Positions 11,873 through 33,668 of a stretch of 64,000 nucleotides of DNA are shown here, piece after piece. The stretch is taken from NCBI GenBank assembly GCA_005281725.1, contig SSBO01000012.1, forward strand, positions 3,020,194 to 3,084,193, given 5' to 3'. Each line of letters starts with the position of its first letter. Within the stretch, counting starts at the first letter, position 1. A program made the translations under genes and the position numbers. The notes below the pieces were generated by a model, which saw nothing but the letters and a program-made list of their open reading frames with translations, had not been told where the DNA came from and searched no databases. Source of the stretch: Wuchereria bancrofti (Eukaryota; Nematoda; Chromadorea; Rhabditida; Onchocercidae).

Positions 11873-14800
11873 TTAGTCGAAATTTTTGTTTTTGCTAAGT
11901 CTGAAGATGTTACCCATATTTTCGCTTGGCAAATTTTCGATCAAGGCAGTTGTTGTGAGTGCAGTTGGAAATGACTGTGTTATATTTTCATCGCTAGTGC
12001 TGCCACATAAACGTTCACGAAGTGGAATACCAGTTGTTTCTTGAATATGTTTTCCCAAACGTTGTCGATAATCTGCGATTTTTTTTTCCTTCTAGAAAAT
12101 AATTTTAATTGAAATTTCTTCAGAAGAAAATTCGAACTATCCTTGCTCAAATAAGGTTTAAAAACAACATCATTCAAAAAAGGGTAAATTCTAAGATGAA
12201 ACCAACATGCTCTATTTGACACTTCAAATCGGCATTCTCATGAACAAGTTGTTGACACCGTTTTTGTTCTATCCCAGCAGCATCTGGATGATACAATGGT
12301 TTAGTACCATCATTTTTCTCACCACTTTTAGGTATCCGACGTATATGAACAATTTTTGGCAAAAATATTAGACCAAGCGTTATATACGTACTCAGTAAAA
12401 CTGAAACTATGACAGTAGTCAGTACTTGTTTTTCTCGGATCATCTTTTTTATGCTCTCAGGAATTTGCTGAAATCCAAATTCAAAGGATTAAGATAAAAA
12501 AGTCACATATAGTGGAGTGGTTCATCCATTAAACCATAACAACTTACGTGTTTACAATTTCAGTGAAGTGCATCTTACAGTAATAAATAATTTAATGACA
12601 ATAATAATTAATAATAATAATTAACAATGACATAATAGTAATAAATAAATAAAATAATAATAGTAACAACAGTAATAACAATAATAAATAATAATAAAAA
12701 CAAAAGCGCCTTCAAAATTTCTTATTTTTCCCACTAGTAGAATGTACTAAGTATCTTGGCCTTAATAAACAAGAAAAAGTTTCAAAAAAAAAAAAAAACC
12801 AGTAATGCTTATAAAAGCAAAATTGGCATCAGATTGAGATCGGATAAGAAAAGTGACAATTGGTCCAGTTATTAGAGATAACACGGCGACGTTATATATA
12901 GCCAAACCAACGAAGCGTAGATCGTTCACGAAAAGAGGTTTTAAATTACGTGTTTCATATGCAAGGAAAAGACCAAGCAGCAACAATAAGCATTTATAAC
13001 CCATTACCAAGCCTATAATAACGACACTTTATTAGTGTTTAAAAACTTACATTACAAAAATATTCCAAATAGTTACTGCAACGCCATTATAAGATTTTCT
13101 GAAAAACAAACAAAATTAAATTACACCTGCAAAAGATAAAGATGAAAATTGTAGAAATATAAAATAAAACAGGAATTCACAGAAGTGTTAAAGAGAAATC
13201 ATGAAAATCCCCCTCTCTGAAAATATAGCACTACAATCGTCCGTTAACAAAGATCAAAGCAATGATGTTCTTTGACGCTTCTTAAGAGGAACACCATTGA
13301 AACAAAATCTCTGTGTCGTTGCATACAAAATTAATTTGCCGGTGTTTGGAAATTTAATAGTTTTCGGAAAATTTCATGCCTGTCCACATTTCTTGTCGTT
13401 TACTTTGACACAATTCAAGAATCGGGAGAAGCATAATATCTTCTTCAGTTCCCATCGGTGGTTCCTGTACAAAGCGACAAGATGCACGACAGAAGATAGT
13501 CTATTTTATATAAGAGATCAAATTTTTGGGGATAAATGAATGTTATAACCGTTGAACCTAGTTCTTGATGGCAATCAGAAATAACTCAGGAATAATTTTC
13601 TTATCGAGATTTTGCTGTATTTAAGAAATATGCATTTTTTGTAAAATGCATAGTTCTTAAAAAATCGTTTTTATTTCTTACTTGTAGTGGAAACCGCTGT
13701 TCGACCCTCTGAATTGGATCAAATGTAAACCAACAGGTTATTATGATTACATCGACCACAAAAAATGCAGTAACTACGAGGTAGAATTTGCATGCAGGTA
13801 CTGGCTGCAAAATAGAAAATAGCAAATTTATCAACGTAGAAGTATATTGCAAAGCTGGAAATTACAAAAATGGTTTTGAATTTATTTTTAGAATTTCATA
13901 TCGTAAAGCTGGAAATTACAAAAGTGATGAAACGCTGCGAAAATAATTTATAGTATCCTTTGAGATTTAATGTTGTGTTCGGTTTTTCTAAGCTCTTCAG
14001 TGTACTACCTGGCCCGTAGTTGGTTTGGAAATAAGATGCTGATTTTCGGTTGAGCCTAAGCGGTGAACAACCCAAACTTTGGCAAACATCGACCCATAAG
14101 CAAACGTGAAACCAACCATTAAAAGTGATATTTGTGACTAAAAATTGAAAGTAGTTGACTTAACAAAAAAAAAAAAATCAAGCCTTAATTTTAATTTTTT
14201 GAGTTATTTTAATTTTGTTTAAATTTAAACTAACATGACAGAGCAGTGTGAATGAATGCTTTGGAACAGTGATTCCACGTGCTGGTAAGCCGAGCAACAA
14301 TAAGCTCAGACAGCAGAGTATACATCCAGCTAGAAGTACATTGTTACACTGCGGTTGAGATTCCATTATTATCCTGAACACGAGTCATTGGAAATTTCTT
14401 CTTTATAGAATCAAGAAATCTCAACTGTTGTATCTATAAACACTGATGCTCGACCGTTTAATTAATGAGCGATAGATATTACCTACTGAATCTAACTTTC
14501 AATAATACTAATTTACCAAGCCAAATACAAGTATTTTCATTCGTGTAACGTTAATTCCACGTTTGTGGCCTAATTGTTCAATCTTCTTTTTTGTTGATGT
14601 ACAAGTGAAAACACATGAAAGGAAAGAATTCTTAATATTTCTGCACAGTAAAATTGTTCATCCAAACCGTATGTATTACTATCAGATAGCAACAAAAGAA
14701 CATCGAAATCGGCTTTTAAAAGAAATGTTCATAGGAAATAAAAGTTAGTCAAAAGATATTATAGAATTTGATATTTTGAGACAACCTACCTGTTTACAGT

Positions 14801-17800
14801 AAAAAAGCATATGCTTGCTAACCTTAGGAATAAGAAGGAAATTACTAGTATTTAAACTGAAACATTGGTTACAGACGATTCATTTGGAGAATTTTGCAGA
14901 CGGTTTGAGAAATTTGGAGACTAGAGCTTTTAGTGTGTTATGACTATGTGAATGAGTGCTTTTTGTTTTTTTCTTATAGCTCCTAAATGACCGTCACTTA
15001 ACAACCACTTCTTACAGTAGATGGATACAATAATCCAGTTCAATAATGAAATAAACTGACATCCTATCAGAGTTCTTGACGTTAAATATGAATATGATAC
15101 AAGCGACAAAGATTCCAATTACTGCCAGTAACGCAATTGCATAATATAACTGAAAAAGTAACCAATCAATTTTTCACTGTATTTTACAACTGGAATTTGT
15201 CAAATAAAATTTCAACTTGTGAAATTTGGACTGACTAATAAGTTAGCAAAACTATCTCTAGATCAACCTCCAGATCAACGGTAAGAAGCCATTCTTGTAT
15301 AAGAGTCGAGTCCGGAGGAGGTAATCCATTCATTGTTGAAAACTTTTCTTTATCATACCAGTCAAGATGAAGTGTTGTTGTATCGTAAATACCTAGCATT
15401 TGATATTTTCCATCTGTAAGAATAACTCATTGCAATTTTATTGAACTGATTTTTCCTCATCAGTATTCGAAAGTTTCAACAACATCGAAATGATTAAAAT
15501 CTACTAATTACTTACTAAATTGAAATTTAAACATTGGGAAAAATTCTTTTATTTCAACCTTGTAACTGTTCAATCTGTGTTCGTGCAATGCGATCGCCGA
15601 GATCATTGAACATAACCTGACCCTGGAAGTTTATAGAATACCACCAATAGATCTGTTGGTGCAACTTATTAAAAGCAAGAAAAGATTAGGAACTTACTGA
15701 AACACCCCGAAACTGTGTGTCTTTAACACAGCTGAACAATTTTTTTGCGATGCTTGTATTGTTATAAGCAAAATTCTCAAGACTTTGTCCTACTTGAAGT
15801 TTTGATAATGTGCAATTGAAAGCCAGTGCAACTGCCCTGCAAACAAATTTTCAGCAAATAACTTCCTAATACAACCGACTGAATAATAACGGCTAGTGCA
15901 ATTTGGACTGCTTGGCTTTATTTCATATTTAAATAAGCTGTAGTTTTGTTTAACTATTTCGATAGCTTTGCTGATGGCATTCGCTATTCGATCAAATTAA
16001 TGATCTAGCTTTAATCCATAAAGTATTACATAACCTAGTTGGAGTAAAAATTATGAGAAAAAACAAGATCCTATGTAAGCTTGCAAATATAAGGAATTCA
16101 AAGTTTAAGTTTTCAACACTACATACACCCTAAAAATCTGAAAGGAAAATATAGAAAGCTTTTGTAATATTTTCAAGTAGTAGCTCCGAAATATCGCTGA
16201 AAAAAAAAGCATATCTGCTTTGCGTAGATGACTGAAAATGCAACTAGTTTTAAGGGAACAAAAATTTCACTCCTTCATCGAGATCATACACTGCTGTATA
16301 TGTTTACTGGAAAAAGACTTGTGATGCTAGTCTCCGTGTACAACATGCTGCAGAACATTGCAAGATATTTGTCCAATCGTATTTTAACACTGGCTTGTAG
16401 TTGTCATACATTGATTATAATATGCTGAACTTAGACTTTGTGCTAATAAACTGTAAAGTCACAAGGGTGAAGCAGCATAAATTTTCAAAAATTTTAATGA
16501 GTTTTCTCAACAGAAGTGGAAAAATAATTACCAAACAGCATCATAGGCTAGGGGAGCTTCTGGAAAACCACCAGTTTCAGCTGGATCAGTGGTCAGCATA
16601 CTCATTAGTCGGTTCTGAAACTGTTTACCAGTCATTCCAGAAACTGTCAGTTCTTCGTCTCTACTTAACATTATGCTCTCCGTTGTAATGTGATACTGCG
16701 CTGCTTTGATCATCTAAAAAGGATTTCCTTATTATAGTTATCTGCTCTATCTTATGCAAGTTTTTCATTTCTTATGGCACAACACAAGTTTTTAATTATT
16801 TTTCTATTATTGGAAACCAAAAAAAAAAAAATCAACAAACTAACTTGTTCGGCAGTGCAGTTAAGTGGCTCATCAGTCGGTGGAATGAACCATGTATCAG
16901 CATACCAACCAATAAAAAACCAAACATATTTTCTACCATAGAGATCATGCTTATAGGCCTGTGAAAACTGCGGTTATCTAGAAAGTTTTTAACGACCTTC
17001 TAAATATGATTTTTCAAAATACATTTCTTGAAATTGCTTGTACAAGTTTAGAGTTTTAAAATCCACAGCTTACCTGACAAAGTACACGTCGAGCCTCAGT
17101 AACATAGAACAAACCAACAATAATCCGAGCATCCTGACGTACCAAGGTTTTTACAGCATCAGATGGATCACCGTAAAAGCTTTGTCGTTCAACTCGGATA
17201 CCCTTCTCTCTGCATTGCTCCTCAAGATCCTTAGCTGTTGACGTGAATACTTCTTCTACTGATTGCAAAATAGTTATTTTCTTCCATTTAAATTTTTGGA
17301 AAAGTCTGAGCCTGCAAAAAACGTGCACATTGTCGATGCAAATATGGAATCTTAGATAAAGTATACATTGGTGAAATCACAAAACTCATGTGGGAAAAAT
17401 TACTATGGGATGGAAAAACTTAGACCTTGTTGGATTTTGCATATTTGCAGTGGGATGAGTTCTAAAAAGTGTCGGAAAACGCTGCCTGTTGGAAAGCGCT
17501 GGAGAGCTACCACCATAAGAAAGCTAAAAAGGATGCATCAGAAAAGTTCAATTAAAATGCAAACTTATTTACAACAAATAAAGGAAAAAAAAACAAATTT
17601 ATAAGAAGTCTAACAAGAATATTTACCACAACAAGATTCCAAACTGGAGCTGCTTCCGCAAAAACGGTTGTCACGGGGCTACAGCCAGCTAGTAACATCA
17701 GTTTTGTTGGAGCCTTATATAGCAATTCATACATTTGCTTTGCTGCCAGACCCGGTTGACACTAAATAAAAATACGTGCTAAGGAGAAAGTGAATAGAGT

Positions 17801-18211
17801 TCACGTAATAATCACTAATCGACATATTTGGTTATAAAAACGACACTAATAAAGTATTACTTTATTAGTGTATAAAAATGAAAAATATTTAAAATTTTTA
17901 ACAGTGATACTCATCAATAAAATTTCAGTTCAATCAATTCTTAAAGAAACTAATAATTAAGAAAAGTCGATAGAAAATTTCTGGAAATGTACCTTACTAT
18001 TATGATAATGTAACTTCAACATATAACCCGGTAATATATTGGTATTGGCATTTACATCCTGAAGGGCGATCTGGACAGCCGGTAGACACGCTTCACCACC
18101 GGCCCATCCACCCGAACCTGCTTCCATTGGAAAAACGCCTCCAATATGTAAATCCACGCAATTAACAACTGCGCATACGCAGTTGCTAATCAACAGTTTC
18201 CAAATCAACAT
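11873..18211 (-). CDS. gbb-1: GABA-B receptor subunit 1, class C GPCR, 17 exons
   Basis: Metabotropic GABA receptor subunit; with subunit 2 it forms the neuronal Gi/o-coupled GABA-B receptor. Exons in transcript order: 18211-17993, 17761-17627, 17523-17426, 17311-17074, 16958-16845, 16713-16532, 15836-15698, 15622-15559, 15413-15268, 15149-15061, 14373-14235, 14137-14009, 13804-13682, 13464-13380, 13012-12800, 12406-12207, 12091-11873. All phases close, giving 843 residues. Residues 1-18 ([18 protein letters not shown]) form a signal peptide, so I prefer this Met to one at 18271. A Venus-flytrap domain follows ([45 protein letters not shown]), then seven membrane segments from about residue 446 ([17 protein letters not shown] in TM5) and a C-terminal coiled coil (about 748-785). 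The coiled coil is followed by RQR, which could act as an RXR-type ER-retention signal (inference). There are no sushi domains, so it resembles the vertebrate 1b form. The intron after 13380 appears to use a GC donor. Confidence 0.93.
12592..12700. repeat. AAT-rich microsatellite inside a gbb-1 intron
   Basis: Imperfect AAT/ATA triplet tract in the intron between gbb-1 exons 12800 and 12406. Probably variable between individuals. Confidence 0.85.
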
Positions 18212-20563
18212 TGCCGCCACATCTCGTTTTGTATTACTCGCTGTTTCACCTGTAATTACCTGTTCCACCATAGATTTATCGCTTCACTCCGGGACTTTTG
18301 TCTTAAGTTTGACATTTTCATGCGTAAATACTAACAGATGATTTGATGAGATGTGTAATGTAGATATGAAACAAGTATGATAGTGAGGAAATTAAAGAAA
18401 AGTAGTGTAAGTTGGACTAAGTAAATATTCAACAAGGTTTAAAAAAACCAAATTTACAAATAGTATCAAAACGTTAACGAAGGATGCAAAATCTGTCTGT
18501 GTTGAGAAAGGTTACTGAGTGGCTTAAAATTTATAAGGTAAACCATAAAATTATTTTAATAAATAGAAAGATGTAGAGCGTATAATATTATTTACGGCAG
18601 TATTAGTCATTCTTTTTTGAACCGAGTAAGGACAAAACATTTTACCTTTTTTATAGTAAACATTTTGATAATAGGTTAAAAAGTGAAATTCAAAAGGAAA
18701 AACTACAAAAGACGAGTCGAACTAACAGAAATAACTCCTCTTTGAAGTTCTGAGGAAAAAATTCATTACAATGTTATCGTTAGTAATGTTTTTTGTATAT
18801 TCCCTCCTACATATAACCCTTAATTTCTTTTTCCTTCTGCCTACCTTCGCCCTTACAAATGATTCGAAATGTTCAATTTAAAATTATTGCTACTAGAAGA
18901 TTATCAATACTTACTGCCCATTATGACCATCAATTCAATTACTCCCCCCCCCTCTTTATATATTTTCTGAGTTTACTAAATCACTCTAATCAGATTCAGT
19001 ACGAAGATCACTCATAATTACATCCAACATTCTGTTATATATAGGAAAGTGTTGCCACTAATCAGAAATATTTCATTTATTCCATTGAAGAAACTTTGAC
19101 ACAAAATTAAAAAATTCGATAACCGATATTTGAACAAGAAATTACTTCTCCTAGATCCCCTCCTAAGAAATTTCAACTTTTGATAGTATTACGGGTATTA
19201 TAAGCTAAAAATGGACTCAAAAAAACTATCCAAAATAAATGTTTGTAATACTTAAGAGAAAAAAATCTAAACAACAGAATTGATAAAGATATCCCGAACG
19301 GAGAAGGAAACAAATTTGACAAAGAGATATCATAGAGGAATCAAAATACGATATAAACTACAAATATATGATCGAAGACGTAAACTGAAAAATCAGTTCG
19401 AAAATAAATTTAGTATGTCTCTTATTTTTAAGGTTTGATCCCTAGTGTAAGGTAGGCTCCAGGAATACTGGAAAGATAGGACTGAAAGGCACATACGACA
19501 TTTAAAAATATGAGCACAGACCTATGCAATACAGATGAAAGTGGAAAATGTTGTGATGTAGAAATAATAGACAGTGATACAATGATATCTAACTTCCTTT
19601 TTTATCTGTGTGGATGTGTTTCAGAACAATACTTAGTACCTACTAAACTCATTAATGACGTTGCGTCATTTACATTAGAACTGATAAACTCTTAAATACC
19701 ACCTAACTTCACTCCACTTAGACTATCTAGAAATAAGACTCGAATATATGTGGCCATATGTAGATAGATGAAGAGATACATAGGACTTCTATTTTCTATT
19801 ATCATCTAACGCTGGGCGTAAGCATCCAATGTAATTATTTTTAACACACATGTTAGCATTTTAATGTTTGGTATGTGAAGAGGGAGAAAGAGGGAAAGAA
19901 ATGATTAGATTTAACATTGCACAACATTACAGCGAGATGCTTTCTGCAAATGCAGTTTGGAAAACAGAGTAAAAGCTAGGCAATTAAAGGCTTGTTACAT
20001 AGGTAACCTATATTATGAGAGACTGTTGCAAAGTCCAGAAGGTAAGGCATCAATCAAATCTCTCACCTTCTCTCTTTCTAACTATTGCAGGCCAAGAAAC
20101 AAAGTTACTTTGCACATATCACTTGAAATCTGCTATTCAGACCTGCTAACATATAAATTTTCCACTTTTTAAATAAGTCGCAAACGATGACTGTGTATAG
20201 TAATATCTGAGCAAAATATATGTAAAAGAAGCTCAAGGGATTACAAATCACTTCACTTATCGGATGCAATTGCAGCATTTGCTAGATGAAAAATTAAAAA
20301 AGTAGTAGTACAGGCGAAATAAACTAAATTATTTTCAAATACAAAACAAAAGCAAAACTGAACATGGGGAACCGATATTTTAGCCTTCAATTAACAGCTT
20401 TGGCTGTCAAACTTTCATAACTAAATATTCCCAGCAACTTCTTATGTTTTCACTTCGAAAAATACAAACCCTAGACTGGATAACCTGCAACAGAATTTCT
20501 TTGAAAAGTAGTAAAAACAATGTATTTTAAAATTTTCAAATCCTTTAAAAAGCCGTAAGAAAC

Positions 20564-20705
20564 CAGGTTGGAATGCTAAGTTCATCTGGTATGCATTGGT
20601 AATGTTATTGTGAAGCACGGCACAACCAATCATTCCGCATAGAGGACATTTTTACTGGATGCTACGGTGGCAAATTAAAGTACCATCAGAAGTGTTTTCT
20701 TTAAA
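20564..20705. repeat. diverged direct repeat, copy 1
   Basis: Starts CAGGTTGGAATGCTAAG and ends AGAAGTGTTTTCTTTAAA. It is repeated in the same orientation at 21123-21257 with scattered substitutions and a few small deletions. The two copies sit about 560 bp apart. Both encode a similar minus-strand peptide with the core HNNITNA. It could be a remnant of a dispersed repeat or of a small tandem duplication; I do not recognise the family. Confidence 0.75.
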
Positions 20706-21122: not shown

Positions 21123-21257
21123 CAGGTTGGAATGCTAAGCTCGTCTGGAATGCATTAGTAATGTTATTGTGAAACATGGGACCAGCAATCATAGAGGACA
21201 TTTTTACTCGGTGTTACGATGGCAAATTAAAGTACCATCAGAAGTGTTTTCTTTAAA
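21123..21257. repeat. diverged direct repeat, copy 2
   Basis: Second copy of the repeat at 20564-20705, same orientation, seven bases shorter. The shared core includes GAGGACATTTTTACT and GGCAAATTAAAGTACCATCA. The sequence between and outside the copies does not align, so the repeated unit is only about 140 bp. Confidence 0.75.
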
Positions 21258-21902
21258 CAACCTTAAAGTTCGTATGAAACTTTTAACAAACAAGTGAGAG
21301 ACAACCTTGCTGGATTGAAGGGGCTTCGGACATAGTCGTCATTTTAATTAAATAGCACTTCCAACGCGATCGGGCATTTCTTGTTTTCCTTTTCTCCCTC
21401 CCCTTTTTTCTATCTCAACTTCTCCCAGTCCTATGCTCTCTCCCTATCCCTGTTTTTGTGAACAACAACCATTTCAGATCCAAGAAACTGACAAATAACC
21501 AATTTAAAATTAAAACATTCCAAAACAATCAAAAATTCTCAAGTACAATTTACACTTTTGATATTAATTACTATTTCACAAATTCTACGAGATGCACATT
21601 TTTCATCTCAGCGCTTTCAACACTAAATTATAAAAGTCTCGATATCTTTGAAGTGTATTATATGCGTGGAATATTTATAAAAGAGGCACAATATTACCCT
21701 GAAATGAACAGTCAAATGAAATTTATTCCGAAATTTCAAATGTTCACTTTTAATAACTGTTGATGTTGAGATGGTGCAAAAAGCACGAAGAAAAAAAGAA
21801 AAACTTCATGAGAGAAATAAAGGAACATAGCGAAAAATTATACAAAACGTAGTTTTATTCCGTGCAAAAGATTTCGTAAATTTCAATAATTCACGAAACG
21901 AG

Positions 21903-24898
21903 TAAGAAGTGAATAATATACAATACGTAGAGCAATAAAGTAGTAAAAGGTGCAAACTGAAAAAACACAGTAACTGTGAATTGTAATCAAACTGGAACAA
22001 GTATAGGAGTAACGAGGTATGAAAACAAAAGGGTTAAATACTTTGAAGGCTTAAAAATAAGAGTCAAACTAGGCTATAGTTATTGGCATTTCTCATTTGC
22101 AAGTATATTACCAGGCAGTCTATACACACAAAAACTTAAGCTTAATAACTGAGATATTCAAAAGAAAAAAATATTTATGGCACACTGTCTGAAAATAAGA
22201 ATTAAATGTTTTGAAAGTAGAAAAGTTCCTCAAACAACGTTTGCAACAAAATCTAACCTCTTGCCTGATTCATCTGTAAGAGTCAATGTAAATTCTTCGT
22301 TGCCTGGCCAGCAATCACTTTCCCTGAAGACTTTAGCTCGCGTGAAATCTGGGATAAACAAATCTGGACAATCACTGCGTGAACTGTGGCCCGCATTCAA
22401 ATGTTGATCTAAAATTTACATTCAAAAAGCAAGCTCATGCTAAATTACGAGTCCTGGTGTACCTTCTACAATAAACTAAAAACAAATAAGCAATAGGCAA
22501 AAATAGATAATTTGAAATGGATGGAATTCCAAACACTTACTATTTCTTTCTGGATAAGTATAAGCAATACAGGGTACATAATCACATTTGATATTTTCGT
22601 ACGGTAAACCGTTCACCTCATTTCTGAAAATTTTCCTGTAAAATGCATACAGCGGGAAAATGCCTTCATTTTCCTTACCGTTATTAAAACGGTTTCCTCA
22701 TATAGTTCAAAGGAAGGTTTTGCTCAGGCAAATCAACACAAGATCAATAATGAATCCATCACTTCAGTCAAAAGAAATATCTACCACTGTAATGGAAATC
22801 GATCAAAATTTCACACTATTTTACAATTCAAAGTATCGAATATTTCAAATGAACACCTTTTAACAAGATTTATTATGAGGGCACGGTCAAATAGATGTGA
22901 TTCCATACATCCATAAAAGGCATTTAAGTGCTTATCATAAAGAGCCAATGTGCTTCGATGAACCAATTTTGCTCGAGTTACTTGCCTTTTCAGCTTAAAA
23001 TTTACACCGCTGCTTTTGTCCTGAATTTTGCTATATTTATCAGTTTTATTATCAGTTTGAATATGCAAGTTGGAACTATTCTCACTCTTGCAAAATCGAC
23101 AAGCAAAAATGTCATCAATCAGTAATAGACTTGCGTTCGTCTATCCCTTTAGTGGTACCCGTTGAAGACTTAACTAATTACCTCGAAGTAAAAGTAAAGC
23201 ATGCTTCGTTTAAAATAAATATTGCGTGCATCTTTCCCACTTCAGTAAAGAAATCGATATAACTTACTGAATCACAGACACATGACAGGCTTTGTTGAGA
23301 AGTTTGTCTTTTGGCAACAATTTCATTAAAATGCTCACTGAACAGAACAGATGGACGCTTTGCCGTTATAAAATCATTCCTTGAATGATTTTAATTAATT
23401 TCAAAGAAACTAAATAGTCGTTTGGCAATTAACTAATAGCGGACAACAAGTAACAAGCAAAGAAATGACCTCAACTTGTGAAATCTATCGGACCAGTATA
23501 ATGTGATATCTCCGAATTTTGGTCAGAACTGATCATCCCTTTCGTCTACCACTTTTTGTATGATTTGTATGATTGGTGTATTCAAAATTATAGCATCACG
23601 TAAATTTTTGACTGAATAAATTTAGTAAACAGATATGTTGTCACAGGTGTAATGAATCATAGACAGGCATACACAAGAGTTGACAAATCGATAGGAATCT
23701 TGGATTGAGAAAGGTCTGTTTGTTGAATATGTTTTTCAATTGTTCTTTCAAAATAAAAGGAAATACACAAACAGATATATATGTATGTGCATATATATGT
23801 GTGTCTGTGTGTATAAATATATTTTAAGAGATGAGTTGGAGAAAATGGTATCGAAACAATTTGCTGTGTACAGTTACATTTTGCTAACAAAAATATAAAT
23901 TTAACTGAGAGCCATCGATCGAAATTCTATCTGTTTCATCACATACCACGTGGCTAATGAAACTCTTATGAAAATTGAGCTCATTTCATCTTAAGGCTCA
24001 ATTGTCTCGAATCTTTTAAGTGATTCGCAAAAGAAAAAGAAAATGAGCATTTTCTAAACAAATTACTGTTGTCGCGAAACTCGAACTAAGTTTCGCGAAC
24101 CTCCAAATAACAAAATATATCAAATAAAATTGTATTACATCCATAAAGCTAAGAATTGTCTTATTTCACGTAGAAAACCGTTTATTTTGTATTCATCTTT
24201 CAAATGGATTATTTACACGGTATCAGCTTCTTATTTAGTTGACCTCATTGCTGTTTCGTCATTAATTGTAAATTATATTTGAATCTACGAGATTAACAAC
24301 TTCTGCTTAACTGACATTCTTTGTCTCTTGTCAACTAGTAATTAGATTTGCTTGTAAACTAGTCAACAACTCTTTGTTAGACTGCTTATTCTTTCGGTAG
24401 GTCAACTTCTTATTGTAAATCATGTACTTTGTTTATGCATATTACTTGCTATATAAGGAGGTCACTCATGTTCACCGGGGAGTGCGTGTGTTTTTACCAA
24501 GAACTAGGAGAGTTCAACCAAGAGGCAGTTCGACCACAAAAAAGGGGTTTTCACTACTTGCACCTCAATTCTTCTCTATAAAATTTGTAGTACTATTGCT
24601 TTTGTTGATAAAAGAATTATTATATTCCTGTGCTACCCACATATTAACATCTCCATCAAACGAATCTTCCCGAGATCAGTAAAACTCTCCCAGAAAAATT
24701 AAACTGCACCTACAACTGTTACAGAAATGTAGATTTGATCTTATCATTACAATAACACATTGCAGCAAATGACAGTTTCATATGCTTCAACTAGTGTGAC
24801 AGTTGACTGACCCATTGCACTAAATATAATCAATAACAATCAACTTTAACCCTTACCACAACATCCTTTAAGTGTCTTCCCTACCACCCTACGAATAA
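21903..24898. repeat. left arm of a 3-kb inverted repeat
   Basis: Reverse complement of 28231-31226. Paired positions always add up to 53129, so no length change has occurred in 2996 bp. Every segment I compared, including an AT/GT-rich microsatellite near 23777-23830 and six translated stretches, was identical. Identity stops sharply at 24899 on the inner side and at 21902 on the outer side. The arm contains the antisense DENN gene fragment described separately. Confidence 0.93.
22258..23361 (-). pseudogene. truncated antisense copy of DENND2-like exons
   Basis: Mirror copies of the internal exons of the DENN gene at 28139-33668. Minus-strand exon copies lie at about 23361-23268, 23086-22857, 22623-22541 and 22408-22258. 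They encode the upstream DENN start (MESHLFDRALIINLVKR), the YTYPERN block and the CPDLFIPDF block. Exon 1 (28139-28187) and every exon from 31292 onward are missing from this side. The copy therefore cannot encode a DENN protein by itself, although its exons carry no disabling change. It could be transcribed as antisense to the intact gene. Whether it is real or an assembly artefact cannot be decided from sequence. Confidence 0.75.
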
Positions 24899-27800
24899 AC
24901 AAATCAATAAAATAAATATAGTAAAAACAACCTTATAACTGCTTTGTGATGAGAGATGGGATGATTCGATCTCGACATCCGCTTCCCTACAAACAAATTC
25001 TATGTGCTTTAATCAGTTGATCTGAAAAAAAAATTCGATTCATGCGAGATCTAAACTAAATGAAGCAGTGGATATGCAAATAAAATAGTGAATTTCGTGG
25101 TACAATGAGGGAATAATAAGCATGCCATTGAAAATTCATATAATCTTTGCCCTAAACGCAATTAAAAATAAAAGCTTGTGCACATCCCACTTAACTTTTC
25201 ACATCCATAATTTACAGCTAAACATGCAGGTCAATTAATCTTGAAAGATGTTTATATAAAAAGGTCCCAGCTTTCAACAAAAGGGTTACTCTCGAAAGAA
25301 GTTGCAGAAGAGTTTGCAATTGAGACAAGGTCAAATAAGTAGTACGCTTCTCACTACCTTTCCTTTTCCTATGTAAGCACGAAAGATTACAGCAACCTAT
25401 TTTGTTGATTTTTAGTGCTTCTACGATATTATCAACAATGTCCTTTTATCGTCTACATTACAAAACAATCCCATTGCTGTTATCGATCGCTTTGATATTT
25501 ACAGCACATTTTACAGCAAAGCCACTGAAAAAGTGGCTAAAAGTTCTCGATGAAATGTTGCGTGAAGGTCAAAGTACATCGTTTTATGTATCACTCTTAC
25601 CATTGCTCAATTTCGAATGGTTTAGAACAGCTATCTGGTGTGGAACATTAACCTAATAAGCCTTCTCCTAAGTTTTCTTCAGCTATATTCTCATTTCATG
25701 CTTATGCAATCAACTTAATTTTTAGAAAAACATAGTCTAATTTATTCTGTTAGTATCATGTCGCTTTCCAATTCATAACAAACACGGATATGATGACAAT
25801 TTTCGGGCTGTTTATGGAATTTAAGACGAAATGGAAGTATTAAAATTGGCACAATTCACAGTGCAATGCTTCACAGTCTCATAGTTCACGGTATCGGTTA
25901 CTTTTTAATTTCTAATATCGCAAACAGTTTACAAGAAACAAAAAAACATTTTTTCTAATTCTTATTTTTCCTAATACTCACCCACAATCTCTTGTTTTTT
26001 GAAAAATGTCAACAAAACTTTTATAAAATTTCCTTATGTTTTTATGCAGCTGTAACTTCGTTTCAGCTTATCAAATAGCTAAATTATATATTTAATTTCA
26101 TATAATCAAAATCCTTATATTAAGGTATTCTTTCTTACGATTTGTGTGAATAGAGCTATGACTCATCTATTCTAGTCAGATTTCTTTATAACTTCGCCGT
26201 ATTTGCTTGAATCGTTTCTGATTAAAGTAACGGCATTATAGTTATATATTAAAAACTGGGAAAAATATGCAAATAGATAGCAATGTCCGAAAAATATAGA
26301 TATGTAAAACAAGTTAATTTCCCATTTACATTTTTTAGTATTGAAATCTTAAGAAAAAACTATATTTACTATTTTTTAAAAAAACTAAGAAAAAACTAAT
26401 TCGGAGATAACCACTATATTCAAGGTATTTTTTCGAAACCAAAGATTAACGATAAAAAATTGTCGATTTTTACTTATTTCCCTTATATATTTTAAATAAA
26501 AACAACGGGGATCTGTCCCGGAACATTCTTTCTAACTAATTATTTTGGAACGCTGTGAATAATTGTACATATAATGCGTCTTCAACAGCTTAAAAATAGA
26601 TCACTACTTTTAAAGACAGTTCTTTCCAAATTTTTGTTTTAGAAGTTTAATTGTTCTTCAAAGAAAATAAATAATTGCATATAGAAACTTGGAGATCTGC
26701 ATTAAAAGTCTGTATGTACGCGCAAAATATCTGTTCTGTACACATCGGCCTCTAATAACACAATTTGATGCGTTTCATGCGCATTTGAGTCATCGAATCA
26801 TTTTTAGTGGAATGTGATTGAATTACTGAGGTTTCTGAAGTAAAGATGTTGCCAGTGCATATTTGTTTTAAAGAAAACCTGTAAACTGTGTTGTCAAATG
26901 TAAATGTGGGATTCTATCTCAAATTTTAGCAATTTTTCCAATTATTATTGTAAATTTATTGTCAAAAATTGAATGAAATTTTGAAAAGAACAGGATGGAG
27001 AGGAAAATTCAAGTTCTTTTTGTTTTCAGAATAGAAGTGTAGAAGTAACTGAAATATAATTTCAAAGTACAATTCAATAAATTGCTACACGACGACTGCC
27101 ATCATTCAAAACTGAAAAATGAAACAGAAATAACAAGAAAAAGTTTACTTGAAAGGAGACAACTGTAATTACACACTGACAGAATCATGTAATAACAATG
27201 ATCTAGCTGATTAGCGAATTCCAAAAGACATATGCGAAATCTTTCAGATATATTTAATTCAAACGGTTTTTGACGCGTAGCTTAAAGGAAATAGCTAGGG
27301 AAAAGCATTGTGAAATTATTGCTTAGAAAATTCAAAAGGTTTAGTATTTCTGATTTAAACAGGGCGTATAAGTACTGAAATATAGGCCGAAGCATTCACC
27401 GAATTTGTAAAAATTTGATTCCGATCAGTTAATACAGTACAGCGCAAGATTGTATATTTCGAATTCAGCATGGTTCAAAATACTCAAAATACTGAGTGGA
27501 AAATAAAGACAGTAATTCAAATCTCATTCACAAAAAAGAGCTGAAGAGTTTCAATAAATGAAACTTCGTGGAATAACTTATTTAAGAAAACAGTTAGCAT
27601 GTTTATCAAGAATGTTTGGTAATAAATTGATTACACATGTAAATAAGAATGATTAAAACTCTTTAAAGATGGCATTTATATTCTTCACTGCTGTCAGTAA
27701 CAAAAGAGTGAGGCTACTGTGGATTTATCTGAATACTAATGGGAATTTGAAATTAAATGACGGTCCTTAAAAAAATCAAATACATACAGAAGTATAAGTA

Positions 27801-28230
27801 TTACGCATTCGGTAATGTGATTAAACTGAGGAATCCAGACGTGATTCACGGCAGTACGCTATTAGGTACCAAAAAAAAACATAGTACAATTTGCTTTTCA
27901 ATCACTGGAGCAATAGCACTGCATGACTCCCGAAAAGGCACCGTACGGTACAAACAAGAAAGTGAATAAACAAACTTCGCAAAAAAACTTTCAATTACTA
28001 TCGTCAAATTAGTAAAATAAATTATTTTACTTTCCAACCGAACGGTTTAGACGTTGACCCTCATTGACACTTTTTCTTCTTTCTTTCCTTAAAGTTGTTA
28101 TTAACATATTACTGTTGTGCAATCGACGAGACCTAGCTATGGTCATTCCTATCGGTTTCGAAATCAGAAAATTCTTTAATAAGACAGGTAAGCATATTTT
28201 TACTGCTTTGTTTCAAAAGACGACTTACAA
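24899..28230. other. single-copy spacer between the inverted-repeat arms
   Basis: 3332 bp of AT-rich unique sequence. No exon chain was found except at its right end, where the proposed first coding exon of the DENN gene (28139-28187) lies. An open frame at 25402-25656 is short, resembles no family I know and has no supporting splice neighbours. If transcription crossed the whole region, this spacer would be the loop of a very large hairpin RNA. Confidence 0.7.
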
Positions 28231-31200
28231 TTATTCGTAGGGTGGTAGGGAAGACACTTAAAGGATGTTGTGGTAAGGGTTAAAGTTGATTGTTATTGAT
28301 TATATTTAGTGCAATGGGTCAGTCAACTGTCACACTAGTTGAAGCATATGAAACTGTCATTTGCTGCAATGTGTTATTGTAATGATAAGATCAAATCTAC
28401 ATTTCTGTAACAGTTGTAGGTGCAGTTTAATTTTTCTGGGAGAGTTTTACTGATCTCGGGAAGATTCGTTTGATGGAGATGTTAATATGTGGGTAGCACA
28501 GGAATATAATAATTCTTTTATCAACAAAAGCAATAGTACTACAAATTTTATAGAGAAGAATTGAGGTGCAAGTAGTGAAAACCCCTTTTTTGTGGTCGAA
28601 CTGCCTCTTGGTTGAACTCTCCTAGTTCTTGGTAAAAACACACGCACTCCCCGGTGAACATGAGTGACCTCCTTATATAGCAAGTAATATGCATAAACAA
28701 AGTACATGATTTACAATAAGAAGTTGACCTACCGAAAGAATAAGCAGTCTAACAAAGAGTTGTTGACTAGTTTACAAGCAAATCTAATTACTAGTTGACA
28801 AGAGACAAAGAATGTCAGTTAAGCAGAAGTTGTTAATCTCGTAGATTCAAATATAATTTACAATTAATGACGAAACAGCAATGAGGTCAACTAAATAAGA
28901 AGCTGATACCGTGTAAATAATCCATTTGAAAGATGAATACAAAATAAACGGTTTTCTACGTGAAATAAGACAATTCTTAGCTTTATGGATGTAATACAAT
29001 TTTATTTGATATATTTTGTTATTTGGAGGTTCGCGAAACTTAGTTCGAGTTTCGCGACAACAGTAATTTGTTTAGAAAATGCTCATTTTCTTTTTCTTTT
29101 GCGAATCACTTAAAAGATTCGAGACAATTGAGCCTTAAGATGAAATGAGCTCAATTTTCATAAGAGTTTCATTAGCCACGTGGTATGTGATGAAACAGAT
29201 AGAATTTCGATCGATGGCTCTCAGTTAAATTTATATTTTTGTTAGCAAAATGTAACTGTACACAGCAAATTGTTTCGATACCATTTTCTCCAACTCATCT
29301 CTTAAAATATATTTATACACACAGACACACATATATATGCACATACATATATATCTGTTTGTGTATTTCCTTTTATTTTGAAAGAACAATTGAAAAACAT
29401 ATTCAACAAACAGACCTTTCTCAATCCAAGATTCCTATCGATTTGTCAACTCTTGTGTATGCCTGTCTATGATTCATTACACCTGTGACAACATATCTGT
29501 TTACTAAATTTATTCAGTCAAAAATTTACGTGATGCTATAATTTTGAATACACCAATCATACAAATCATACAAAAAGTGGTAGACGAAAGGGATGATCAG
29601 TTCTGACCAAAATTCGGAGATATCACATTATACTGGTCCGATAGATTTCACAAGTTGAGGTCATTTCTTTGCTTGTTACTTGTTGTCCGCTATTAGTTAA
29701 TTGCCAAACGACTATTTAGTTTCTTTGAAATTAATTAAAATCATTCAAGGAATGATTTTATAACGGCAAAGCGTCCATCTGTTCTGTTCAGTGAGCATTT
29801 TAATGAAATTGTTGCCAAAAGACAAACTTCTCAACAAAGCCTGTCATGTGTCTGTGATTCAGTAAGTTATATCGATTTCTTTACTGAAGTGGGAAAGATG
29901 CACGCAATATTTATTTTAAACGAAGCATGCTTTACTTTTACTTCGAGGTAATTAGTTAAGTCTTCAACGGGTACCACTAAAGGGATAGACGAACGCAAGT
30001 CTATTACTGATTGATGACATTTTTGCTTGTCGATTTTGCAAGAGTGAGAATAGTTCCAACTTGCATATTCAAACTGATAATAAAACTGATAAATATAGCA
30101 AAATTCAGGACAAAAGCAGCGGTGTAAATTTTAAGCTGAAAAGGCAAGTAACTCGAGCAAAATTGGTTCATCGAAGCACATTGGCTCTTTATGATAAGCA
30201 CTTAAATGCCTTTTATGGATGTATGGAATCACATCTATTTGACCGTGCCCTCATAATAAATCTTGTTAAAAGGTGTTCATTTGAAATATTCGATACTTTG
30301 AATTGTAAAATAGTGTGAAATTTTGATCGATTTCCATTACAGTGGTAGATATTTCTTTTGACTGAAGTGATGGATTCATTATTGATCTTGTGTTGATTTG
30401 CCTGAGCAAAACCTTCCTTTGAACTATATGAGGAAACCGTTTTAATAACGGTAAGGAAAATGAAGGCATTTTCCCGCTGTATGCATTTTACAGGAAAATT
30501 TTCAGAAATGAGGTGAACGGTTTACCGTACGAAAATATCAAATGTGATTATGTACCCTGTATTGCTTATACTTATCCAGAAAGAAATAGTAAGTGTTTGG
30601 AATTCCATCCATTTCAAATTATCTATTTTTGCCTATTGCTTATTTGTTTTTAGTTTATTGTAGAAGGTACACCAGGACTCGTAATTTAGCATGAGCTTGC
30701 TTTTTGAATGTAAATTTTAGATCAACATTTGAATGCGGGCCACAGTTCACGCAGTGATTGTCCAGATTTGTTTATCCCAGATTTCACGCGAGCTAAAGTC
30801 TTCAGGGAAAGTGATTGCTGGCCAGGCAACGAAGAATTTACATTGACTCTTACAGATGAATCAGGCAAGAGGTTAGATTTTGTTGCAAACGTTGTTTGAG
30901 GAACTTTTCTACTTTCAAAACATTTAATTCTTATTTTCAGACAGTGTGCCATAAATATTTTTTTCTTTTGAATATCTCAGTTATTAAGCTTAAGTTTTTG
31001 TGTGTATAGACTGCCTGGTAATATACTTGCAAATGAGAAATGCCAATAACTATAGCCTAGTTTGACTCTTATTTTTAAGCCTTCAAAGTATTTAACCCTT
31101 TTGTTTTCATACCTCGTTACTCCTATACTTGTTCCAGTTTGATTACAATTCACAGTTACTGTGTTTTTTCAGTTTGCACCTTTTACTACTTTATTGCTCT

Positions 31201-33668
31201 ACGTATTGTATATTATTCACTTCTTATTCTTCTCTTGCACGCAATAAAGCTACGTTTTGTTTATTGAGATAGCTACAGGAATGAATTTCAGAACTTTCGC
31301 ATATTGTGTACGTCACTTGATACGACGGCATGAACTGAATAACGAACAAGGTATTGCTTTTGGTATTTTTTTTTTTGTAACTTTTAAGGAACTGTTTTAT
31401 CTTTTTTAACATTTACAATTTTCTTATGGCTTTATAGTGAAGGAAAAAGTGATGTTATGTAATGATTATCCTATCGTAAAAATTGATCACTTCCTTTGAA
31501 TATTTAAAACCAATTAGCTGTAACGCACGATTACAATTTTACAGGAAATATCGCTTTGTCCCGGATAATTAAAGTATAATTGCATTTTTGCTTTTACGTA
31601 AATAACTTTGTGCTGTGAATAGTTACAAACAAAGATTGTTTACAACTACATCTTTAGAAGAAGGTGATATGCCCGAAGTTTTTGCCATCATTTCACCGAT
31701 TCATGCACCACTGTTTTATTTTGCGCTTGCTCGAGAATGCGTGTGTTATTTACACGATAATTTGGGAAGACTGGAAAATTTGCTGAATGTTGTTTATCGA
31801 TGCACATTTCCTACTGACGGTTAGAATCTTAAACTTTCTCAGATAATTTATCTGAGTTTAGGAAAGAATTTGAATCTCCAGTACTTCGAAAGAACTTCAC
31901 TCTTTTACTGGGCTGCAGCTACTGAGTAACTAGTACCTCATTTCAGGTAGTTCTCTGCATGTTTTCGAAAAAGCAAAAGATGGATTCAAACGGAATATTG
32001 TGATCCGAGGACAAGGTGCTATACTGGGTCAGTCAAATTGTTCTGGAATTGTGCGACGCATGGGGCCAGAAATTACAGTTGCTATAATTGCAGCATTATT
32101 GGCTGAACAACGAGTTATCATTGCTGGTGGTTCGGTAGTTTTTCAAGTGTTTATATATTTAAACGCTTTGTAATTGAATAATTCGTGGATGAAATAATAG
32201 GGCAGCTAATTAATTAATGAAGGAAGATATGTTTGAAGTAAGGAAATGAGTCAACTAATTAGTCAATGATGTAAGGAAGAAAAATATATTAAATTTCCAA
32301 AAGTTGGAAAACGAGAATGAAAATATTATAGCATAATGAGTGGAAGATTACTCTATTAAGCAGTTGCAGGTACAATGCGTTTGCCACGCGGTTCAATCGG
32401 TCGCTTGTCTACTGCATCCATTTTCATGGCCTTATACATTAATCCCAGTTCTTCCAGATTCTTTGCTAGAAATAGTAAATTCTCCAACACCATATCTTAT
32501 GGGGTTGTTAAGGTCAGTTAGTCTTTTTTACCCCGTCTTTTTCTTTGCTACTTTTACGATTTATTTAACATTTTAATTTATCGATGCAATCAGTTTGTTT
32601 ACTTCTGTTGAAGCATCGGTGCTATTCAATCTCGAATAAATTTTAGGACAAACATGTATAAATTGAAGTCTTTGGCCGCCAAGGATAAGAATCAGTGCAC
32701 TGATGATCTTACCCAGGTAGATTTTACAAGTTAAAAGTTTCTCAGCATTGTGTTTGCAAACGTTCGTCATATTATGAACCAAATATAACTTCGAAAGTAT
32801 TAGGCACTTTGTTTTGAGGACGACCTTGTTATAGTCGATCTCGATGGCGGTATATTTGTGCCACAACTTACCGAACTGTATACTGCAAGTGAGAATATTG
32901 ATTATAAAGCAAAAAACGCATTCGCATTATGTGAGAAACTTTTGGTGCCCAGGAAGCTTGCAGTAAGTCTTGCTATAAAACTCAAAGAAGCTATCGCTGT
33001 TGGTGAAGGCCCTCGCGCTGATCTTTTGCTTCAGAAAGTAGGTTTTTGTTTTGGACTGAGAAATAACTTTTGATGAACTGGGAAGAAATGCAGTTTGAAC
33101 GACGAAACGTAAGAAGGTATTTTTTTTATTTCATCTTTCACTTTCAATTACCGAAATTTATTTTATGCCGAAAAAGAAGCTTTCAGGCAATGCTGTCTTG
33201 GTTTGCAGCTTTAATTTGGCCCTATAAAGGTTGTGGCTTCTATGCGGCATTTGTCGCCGAATCAAATGGTGATTTTGAATCTTTTCGAACTAGCAAGGCT
33301 CAATTGATCGCCTCACACTCTTCTAAATCTGCTCGACGCTTTACAGAATGGTTTGTCGAAACTGGTATTTTTCGTGAGTGGATCCGTCGAAAGGTGATTT
33401 ATTGTAATTCGTTCGAAATGCAAAAATGCATTTTTCGAAGTCCAAATCATGTTATTTACCGGATAAATCCTCATTACATCTTTAACAGGTGGCTGGTGCT
33501 CCGGAAATAACCAATATGATTCCTGATGTCGCGGAAGAAGTGGTAAATCAGAAATTCGACGAATGCGTCATTGCGGCAACCCCTCAATCATCCCAAAGGC
33601 GTGTGACTAACATATTCACAAAAGCACACAACGTTATCTTTCGTTCTTATTTGGGGAAGAAGTTGTGA
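28139..33668 (+). CDS. DENN-domain protein, DENND2-like putative Rab exchange factor
   Basis: DENN proteins activate Rab GTPases in membrane traffic. Placed exons: 28139-28187 (MVIPIGFEIRKFF, strong GTAAGC donor, tentative first exon), about 29768-29861, 30043-30272, 30506-30588, 30721-30871, 31292-31350, 31658-31819, 31947-32134, 32370-32512, 32647-32716, 32804-33037, 33187-33393, 33489-33668. From 30043 on all phases close to a TGA (568 residues). Upstream DENN: LFDRALIINL, YTYPERN, CPDLFIPDF, TFAYCVRHLI. Core DENN: LLAEQRVIIAGGS and LHPFSWPYTLIPVLPDSLLE..SPTPYLMGLL. Downstream DENN: SKSARRFTEWFVETGIF. Overall this fits DENND2 better than DENND1/RME-4. Exons between 28187 and 29768 are unresolved, so the N-terminus is uncertain. 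The 5' half lies inside the right arm of the inverted repeat. Confidence 0.82.
28231..31226. repeat. right arm of a 3-kb inverted repeat
   Basis: Mirror image of 21903-24898. It begins 43 bp after the proposed first exon of the DENN gene and ends in the intron between exons 30871 and 31292. Because the gene reads through both edges of this arm in phase, this arm is the ancestral location and the left arm is the duplicate. Confidence 0.93.

What the first reader, a model, noticed from the sequence alone, without database searches (positions are those of the whole stretch)
21903..31226. Near-perfect 3-kb inverted repeat with a 3.3-kb spacer
Arms 21903-24898 and 28231-31226 pair without a single length change (coordinates sum to 53129 throughout), and every compared segment is identical, including a microsatellite that should mutate quickly. 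Either this is a very recent inverted duplication, or arms kept alike by gene conversion, or an assembly or library chimera. If real, it is a large cruciform- or hairpin-forming locus.
Basis: seen in the sequence. Interest (0 to 1): 0.8.

Follow-up and report, generated by a model that had tools for sequence, protein, structure and literature searches.

The report
Old inverted repeat kept identical
A filarial worm carries two letter-for-letter identical, mirror-image 3-kb copies of the front half of a gene; proteins of related worms suggest that the copy is old, so something probably keeps overwriting one copy with the other, rather than it being a new duplicate or an assembly mistake.

Summary
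The genome is a nematode's, closest to Brugia by protein. The right arm is the original: it holds exons 1-4 of a DENN-domain gene whose other exons lie outside it. The left arm is a truncated inverted copy.

Evidence that it is old: (1) A 33-base stretch with 4 differences, beyond an indel, continues the homology past both outer ends; its pattern occurs nowhere else in 86.5 Mb. (2) Dirofilaria immitis has a protein joining exons 1-4 sequence to a tail that in this genome matches only the left flank, and a longer version with the DENN domain. Elaeophora elaphi adds weaker evidence from the spacer side. (3) The two D. immitis versions are identical at 95 of 95 residues, yet differ from other filariae with full overlap at 12 to 16.

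Best reading: an old inverted partial duplication whose arms are homogenised by gene conversion, as proposed for Caenorhabditis. No DNA of other filariae and no reads were examined.

The parts
21903..24898 (-). Left arm: inverted, 3'-truncated copy of the DENN-gene 5' half
   Evidence: 0 differences in 2996 to the right arm; holds exons 1-4 but not 5-12 of the model
28231..31226 (+). Right arm: original copy; holds DENN exons 1-4
   Evidence: 12-exon chain with an open frame runs out of the arm; nematodes outside the filariae have both parts in one protein
24899..28230 (.). Spacer; found once in the genome apart from one weak 148-bp match on C9
21839..21871 (+). Diverged remnant of homology just outside the left arm
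   Evidence: 29 of 33 identical to the reverse complement of 31231-31263; its 30-base pattern, up to 3 mismatches allowed, occurs twice in 86.5 Mb
31231..31263 (-). Partner of the remnant, in DENN intron 4, ending 28 bases before exon 5 (31292)
21872..21902 (+). 31 bases between remnant and left arm (4 bases, 31227-31230, on the right): heterology containing a quasi-palindrome TTTCGT...ACGAAA
29750..33668 (+). DENN-domain gene (DENND2-like): exons 29750-29861, 30109-30272, 30506-30588, 30721-30871 | 31292-31350, 31658-31819, 31947-32134, 32370-32512, 32647-32716, 32819-33037, 33187-33393, 33489-33668; a first exon upstream was not found
   Evidence: hand-made model, 11 introns all GT-AG, open frame of 578 residues; PF02141 E 8.3e-21 on a 265-residue piece; relatives
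21431..24978 (-). Inferred truncated gene of the left arm: exon 1 24932-24978 in the spacer, then 23268-23379, 22857-23020, 22541-22623, 22258-22408, ending in the left flank (21431-21449, or another nearby acceptor)
   Evidence: 191-residue open frame; exon 1 resembles that of E. elaphi P0006, the left flank resembles the tail of D. immitis P0004
21322..21444 (-). Left-flank stretch matching the tail of the truncated D. immitis protein; this frame holds one TGA here
   Evidence: 61%, E 1.8e-9, the only place listed for this part of P0004 in the genome

Best explanation
An old inverted partial gene duplication whose arms evolve in concert. Step 1 (inferred): in an ancestor shared with Dirofilaria, the 5' half of a DENN gene (exons 1-4, at least about 3.03 kb) was copied in inverted orientation upstream of itself, 3.3 kb away in today's window. 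Step 2 (gene model and relatives; no RNA): the left copy became a separate short gene on the minus strand, with a first exon in the spacer and an end in the left flank. Step 3 (inferred from the mismatch between the age of the layout and the identity of the arms): recombination between the arms repeatedly copies one arm over the other, so that introns and exons stay identical, while 33 bases past a 31-versus-4-base heterology have drifted to 88%.
For: 0 of 2996 differences in the arms against 4 of 33 in the flanking remnant (Fisher p 1.2e-8); the remnant pattern is found only at these two places in the genome and its alignment score, 46, was not reached in 20,000 random draws (best 42; a few overlapping draws were skipped). 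D. immitis: P0012, which has part of the N-terminal exons and the DENN domain, and truncated P0004, both listed with a 27,526,700-base contig, are identical at 95 of 95 residues. P0004's tail matches this window at 21322-21444 minus, E 1.8e-9, the only such place listed (25 of 39 identical; best in 264 kb with score 133, next 37, best of 40 shuffled queries 49). E. elaphi P0006 begins with an exon like 24931-24978 minus (9 of 16 identical; best in 264 kb with score 48, next 31). Right arm ancestral: Thelazia, Ascaris, Dracunculus and Enterobius have both parts in one protein (Ascaris from the listing only).
Against: No DNA of another filaria was seen; gene models of other species may be wrong, and P0004 and P0012 could be two models of one locus. 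The exon-1 match is short: 40 shuffled queries reached 44 against 48, and the search of the whole genome with P0006 did not list that place. The test that truncated copies form one clade was not rejected (p 0.374), but the four identical full/truncated sets were left free in it, so it decides nothing. Arm GC (33.2%) is not above the 5-kb flanks (33.8%, 35.0%). No homology above chance beyond the inner ends. Seven of the nine truncated proteins do not tell the left arm from a split gene model. A passage of PMC2728529 reports that in C. elegans most detected conversion was in large gene families, so conversion within a lone pair is not the usual case there.
Confidence: 0.83

Rival explanations
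1. Very recent inverted duplication by template switching: a replication fork switched strands at a pre-existing short inverted pair (the 33-base pair), copied 3 kb and switched back. No conversion is needed.
For: Perfect identity; the outer junction lies beside a unique 33-base inverted pair with a quasi-palindrome, and template-switch models use short inverted repeats (PMC10766186, passages).
Against: Left-arm-specific sequence is already seen in D. immitis and probably E. elaphi. The unique 33-base pair would itself need an earlier inverted duplication at the very same place.
Confidence: 0.1
2. Assembly or library chimera, or polishing that made two merely similar arms identical.
For: No reads could be examined; arm-to-arm homogenisation by polishing cannot be excluded for a few differences.
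Against: A chimera copies existing letters and would not leave a diverged remnant outside the arms; two junctions with a 3.3-kb single-copy spacer would be needed; a D. immitis protein carries left-flank sequence.
Confidence: 0.04
3. In D. immitis the exons exist once and the left-flank sequence was moved behind exon 4 there, while this genome gained its left arm recently and separately.
For: P0004 and P0012 are identical where they overlap, as two models of one locus would be.
Against: It needs an extra rearrangement that happens to join exon 4 to the same flank, in the same direction, as in this window; the flank match is the only one listed in this genome, and the E. elaphi first exon points to the same layout.
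Confidence: 0.03

Closest known systems
Inverted repeats with paralogous gene pairs in Caenorhabditis elegans, C. briggsae and C. remanei (Zhao et al. 2007, PMC1803023; parts 1-3 of 4 read)
   Same: Nematode; inverted copies with arms often 95-100% alike within a species and much less between species; in one C. briggsae pair identity covers the 5' side while the 3' part differs; gene conversion offered as a mechanism
   Different: There both members are genes and the spacers given are short (126 and 414 bp); some pairs have decayed (83% in C. remanei, under 61% in C. briggsae). Here the spacer is 3.3 kb, one copy is cut off after exon 4, and the lineage is filarial
Primate X and Y palindromes (PMC8981503 and PMC3723533, abstracts and outlines only)
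   Same: Arm identity above 99% kept by arm-to-arm gene conversion, conserved across primate species; conversion tracts of kilobases (mean 2068 bp in P6)
   Different: Conversion there is GC-biased and X-palindrome arms are richer in GC than their flanks; here arm GC is not raised
Partial gene duplicates of C. elegans (PMC2728529 and PMC3449122, passages only)
   Same: Median duplication span 1.4 kb, about half of young pairs partial or chimeric; breakpoints in introns with recruitment of neighbouring sequence are described
   Different: Those are young pairs; this one seems old and homogenised
ODIRA / template-switch inverted copy-number variants (PMC10766186, passages only)
   Same: Junctions at short inverted pairs
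   Different: The model gives inverted triplications from repeats of about 5 nt, 40-80 nt apart; here 33 bp, kilobases apart, and no triplication

Membership tests
Inverted repeat maintained by arm-to-arm gene conversion | Two inverted arms with near-perfect identity in exons and introns | tested here: met
   2996 of 2996
Inverted repeat maintained by arm-to-arm gene conversion | Structure older than a species split | tested here: met
   Left-arm-specific sequence in D. immitis P0004, weaker in E. elaphi P0006 (not listed); protein level only
Inverted repeat maintained by arm-to-arm gene conversion | Copies more alike within a species than between species | tested here: met
   D. immitis 0 of 95, this genome 0 of 95, against 5 (this genome to Brugia) and 15 (to D. 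immitis) of 95; the L. sigmodontis pair is 0 of 95 but on separate contigs; amino acids only for other species
Inverted repeat maintained by arm-to-arm gene conversion | Homology fades at the outer ends | tested here: met
   29 of 33 identical beyond an indel
Inverted repeat maintained by arm-to-arm gene conversion | Homology fades at the inner ends | tested here: not met
   Nothing above chance: 3079 of 20,000 draws as good, 809 of 2993; the inner ends look like the bare breakpoint. Not a feature the family requires
Inverted repeat maintained by arm-to-arm gene conversion | Segregating conversion events or shared variants in both arms | not testable with these tools
   no reads or population data
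GC-biased palindrome conversion (primates) | Arms richer in GC than flanks | tested here: not met
   0.332 against 0.338 and 0.350
Transposon with terminal inverted repeats | Multiple copies of the unit in the genome | tested here: not met
   Full arm and spacer are listed at this locus only
DENN (AEX-3) domain protein | Pfam PF02141 match | tested here: met
   E 8.3e-21, 75.2 bits, cut-off 23.4

The most novel reading that the evidence does not exclude
The locus is a slow flip switch. Crossing-over between the perfect arms inverts the 3.3-kb spacer, which carries the inferred first exon (and presumably the promoter) of the truncated gene. Each flip would hand that first exon to the full-length DENN gene and leave the truncated gene with the other end, so that the repeat is kept by selection for exchanging promoters between a full-length and a uDENN-only protein.
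Probability: 0.06. Interest if true: 0.7.

Novelty: new member of a known kind. Interest (0 to 1): 0.45.

Why it matters
It appears to be a filarial counterpart of the inverted repeats described in Caenorhabditis, with a built-in clock: perfect arms, a diverged remnant at their edge, and relatives with both a longer and a truncated protein. That makes conversion rate, tract ends and possible selection on the truncated copy testable with existing filarial genomes. It also warns that perfect inverted arms in an assembly need be neither young nor artefacts. Three searches of the held library (filarial + inverted repeat + gene conversion: 5 papers; Brugia malayi + palindrome: 7; Bm10957: 0) listed no paper whose title or abstract start describes such a case; the papers were not opened, and most subscription journals are missing from the library.

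Tried and rejected
Chimera and recent duplication: see the rivals. Homology beyond the inner ends: not above chance (3079 of 20,000 draws as good; 809 of 2993). GC-biased conversion: no signal. A hairpin RNA from the two genes: both copies are read outward from the spacer, so their transcripts would have the same sense (inference). RNA families in the window: none at gathering score. DNA of other filariae as contamination in bacterial assemblies: 17 pattern matches, 0 confirmed. Tree of the shared 95 residues: 14 rows, 10 different; this genome's one sequence was entered twice, as full and as truncated; three rows (B. pahangi, L. sigmodontis trunc b, A. viteae) were dropped beforehand for partial overlap; truncated rows are scattered (6 changes; 0 of 200 bootstrap trees with one), branch support is weak, clade test p 0.374 with identical sets left free. 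The alignment of the dispersed repeat used the wrong end of the arm and is void; one search repeats it by BLAST. The left-gene model had a one-base error; one search corrects it.

How common such repeats are: 264 kb around the window hold two further inverted pairs at 99.5% or more, of 1178 and 423 bp, and no direct pair of that length and identity. The 1178-bp pair belongs to a dispersed multi-copy repeat; the 423-bp arms are listed at a single locus. Neither has a clear remnant outside its arms (the best, at the inner ends of the 1178-bp pair, is equalled by 124 of 2993 random pairs).
Full report
The finding. The arms are exact: 0 differences in 2996 bases between 21903-24898 and the reverse complement of 28231-31226. 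The repeat finder's longer arms take in 11 outer bases with 4 mismatches. Both arms lie on one 24.1-Mb contig of an 86.5-Mb assembly of 108 contigs and no third full copy is listed (40 of 267 candidates scored). The spacer is found once but for one weak 148-bp match. The 503 bases left of the left arm are found once.

The organism. Rfam's SL1 spliced-leader RNA rings in this genome, seven of nine listed matches over the cut-off, and in 0 of 14 control genomes, so it is a nematode. The 7 proteins come from filarial species. Over the shared 95 residues this genome differs from B. malayi and B. timori at 5 positions, and from the other filarial rows that overlap in full (Loa, D. immitis, L. sigmodontis, O. 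flexuosa, C. johnstoni, E. elaphi) at 13 to 18; rows with a re-spliced start or gaps (B. pahangi, L. sigmodontis trunc b, O. volvulus, A. viteae) are left out of that range. The species is not identified.

Which arm is original. On the plus strand a 12-exon open frame of 578 residues runs from 29751 to 33668 (made by hand; its 11 introns all read GT...AG; the start of exon 1, taken as 29750, is the least certain, as a first exon must lie further upstream). Exons 1-4 are in the right arm, exons 5-12 outside it. A 265-residue piece matches Pfam DENN and, by sequence, the structures of DENND1A and DENND1B. A search with the N-terminal 172 residues for longer proteins returned 10, all with the DENN domain: Brugia, Thelazia, Litomosoides, Onchocerca, Dirofilaria, Ascaris, Dracunculus, Acanthocheilonema, Enterobius and one unnamed; several models start late, that of Acanthocheilonema within exon 4, and the Ascaris sequence was not fetched. 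Sources call two of them DENND2C and 'suppression of tumorigenicity 5'. The right arm is therefore the original, and the left arm is a copy that stops in intron 4.

The edge of the repeat. Just outside both arms a 33-base stretch matches its partner at 29 positions (21839-21871 and 31231-31263), with 31 bases between it and the arm on the left and 4 on the right. A 30-base pattern covering both versions, with up to 3 mismatches allowed, occurs twice in the whole genome, at these two places; its reversed control occurs nowhere. Its alignment score of 46 was not reached in 20,000 random draws of 100-base pairs (best 42; overlapping draws skipped) nor in 2993 pairs of 300 bases (best 37). So the duplicated stretch was longer than the perfect arms, and its edge has diverged by 12% while 2996 bases have none (Fisher p 1.2e-8; the test treats sites as independent). 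The inner ends show no such remnant.

Relatives. A search with the 265-residue piece returned 7 proteins; 6 are N-terminal only and go on for just 8 to 75 residues past the end of the last exon inside the arm (counted by hand). A search for short relatives of the N-terminal part returned 9 proteins, all from genera of Onchocercidae (family checked for Dirofilaria, Elaeophora and Brugia, the others recalled). Seven of the nine could be split gene models or use an end inside the arm. Two carry sequence specific to the left side. D. immitis P0004 goes on after ...DESGKR into a tail that matches this window at 21322-21444 on the minus strand, outside the left arm; searched against the whole genome, P0004 finds 5 places: the exons in both arms and this flank, E 1.8e-9. 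E. elaphi P0006 starts with an exon that matches 24931-24978 on the minus strand, in the spacer 33 bases from the left arm, with an ATG and a donor site; it is the best place in 264 kb (48, next 31), though 40 shuffled queries reached 44, the genome-wide search with all of P0006 did not list it, and the end of P0006 reads into an intron present in both arms. In this genome the same parts give an open frame of 191 residues on the minus strand (its last few codons depend on which acceptor is used).

Concerted evolution. In D. immitis P0012 (with the DENN domain) and the truncated P0004, both listed with a 27,526,700-base contig, are identical at 95 of 95 residues and differ from this genome at 15 and from Brugia at 13. 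If the copies had gone their own ways since before the split, no difference in 95 would have a chance of about 3e-6 to 8e-8 (simple binomial with 12 to 15 expected differences). This assumes that P0004 and P0012 are two loci; if they are two models of one locus, it says nothing. The L. sigmodontis pair is also identical but lies on different contigs, perhaps of different assemblies; the Brugia pair comes from two species. The tree groups identical full and truncated rows, which follows from their identity, and has few informative columns otherwise.

Mechanism and limits. Shown here: identity of the arms, remnant, gene structure by model, relatives' proteins. Inferred: the age of the duplication (before the split from Dirofilaria; perhaps after Thelazia, for which only a long protein was found, which is weak), conversion as the homogenising process, its direction, and a product from the left arm. 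Zhao et al. 2007 (PMC1803023; parts 1-3 of 4 read) describe a like pattern in three Caenorhabditis species, offer gene conversion as a mechanism and also suggest selection for the structure. Against a general role, a passage of PMC2728529 says that conversion detected in C. elegans was mostly in large gene families. The abstract of PMC3723533 gives mean conversion tracts of 2068 bp in a human palindrome, so arms of 3 kb are within reach of few events, and reports inversions as rare, which weighs against a frequent spacer flip. Arm GC is not raised, unlike the primate X palindromes (PMC8981503, abstract).

Verdict. Real, of a kind known in nematodes, and probably older than its perfect identity suggests; moderately interesting because relatives make the conversion testable.

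Noticed in passing
L014:3978-5676 (G000:C12:3004171-3005869), outside the window: A second perfect inverted pair: 423-bp arms, 100% identical, 853-bp spacer, the arms listed nowhere else in the genome (more matches, to a repeat at the end of the spacer, were not listed). No remnant at its ends.
   Followed up: partly
G000:C12:2956539-2957715, 2999845-3001022 and 2737597-2738774: Three nearly identical copies of a 1177-bp stretch on one contig, with many diverged relatives (65-87%, often partial) elsewhere: a dispersed repeat with recent copies.
   Followed up: partly
window 24112-24715 and its mirror in the right arm: Dispersed repeat of about 500-600 bases, 80-84% alike in the six loci compared; 40 of 267 genome-wide candidates were scored.
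   Followed up: partly
window 20564-20705 and 21123-21257: Direct repeat of about 140 bases, 86% identical, near the left arm.
   Followed up: no
window 31010 onwards (and mirror in the left arm): An in-frame short terminal exon (RLPGNILANEKCQ, stop) inside the arm, as at the end of the B. pahangi protein P0020; it could end either copy early.
   Followed up: partly
window 12177-18283, minus strand: Exons of a receptor with a ligand-binding ANF_receptor domain (17059-17376, E 2.1e-13; 17960-18283 and a weak 7tm_3 hit at 12177-12488 are below the cut-offs), perhaps a GABA-B-like receptor (the name is recalled).
   Followed up: no
G000:C12:3120321-3120446, outside the window: 126 N in the 264-kb tile: a gap or a withheld stretch.
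   Followed up: no
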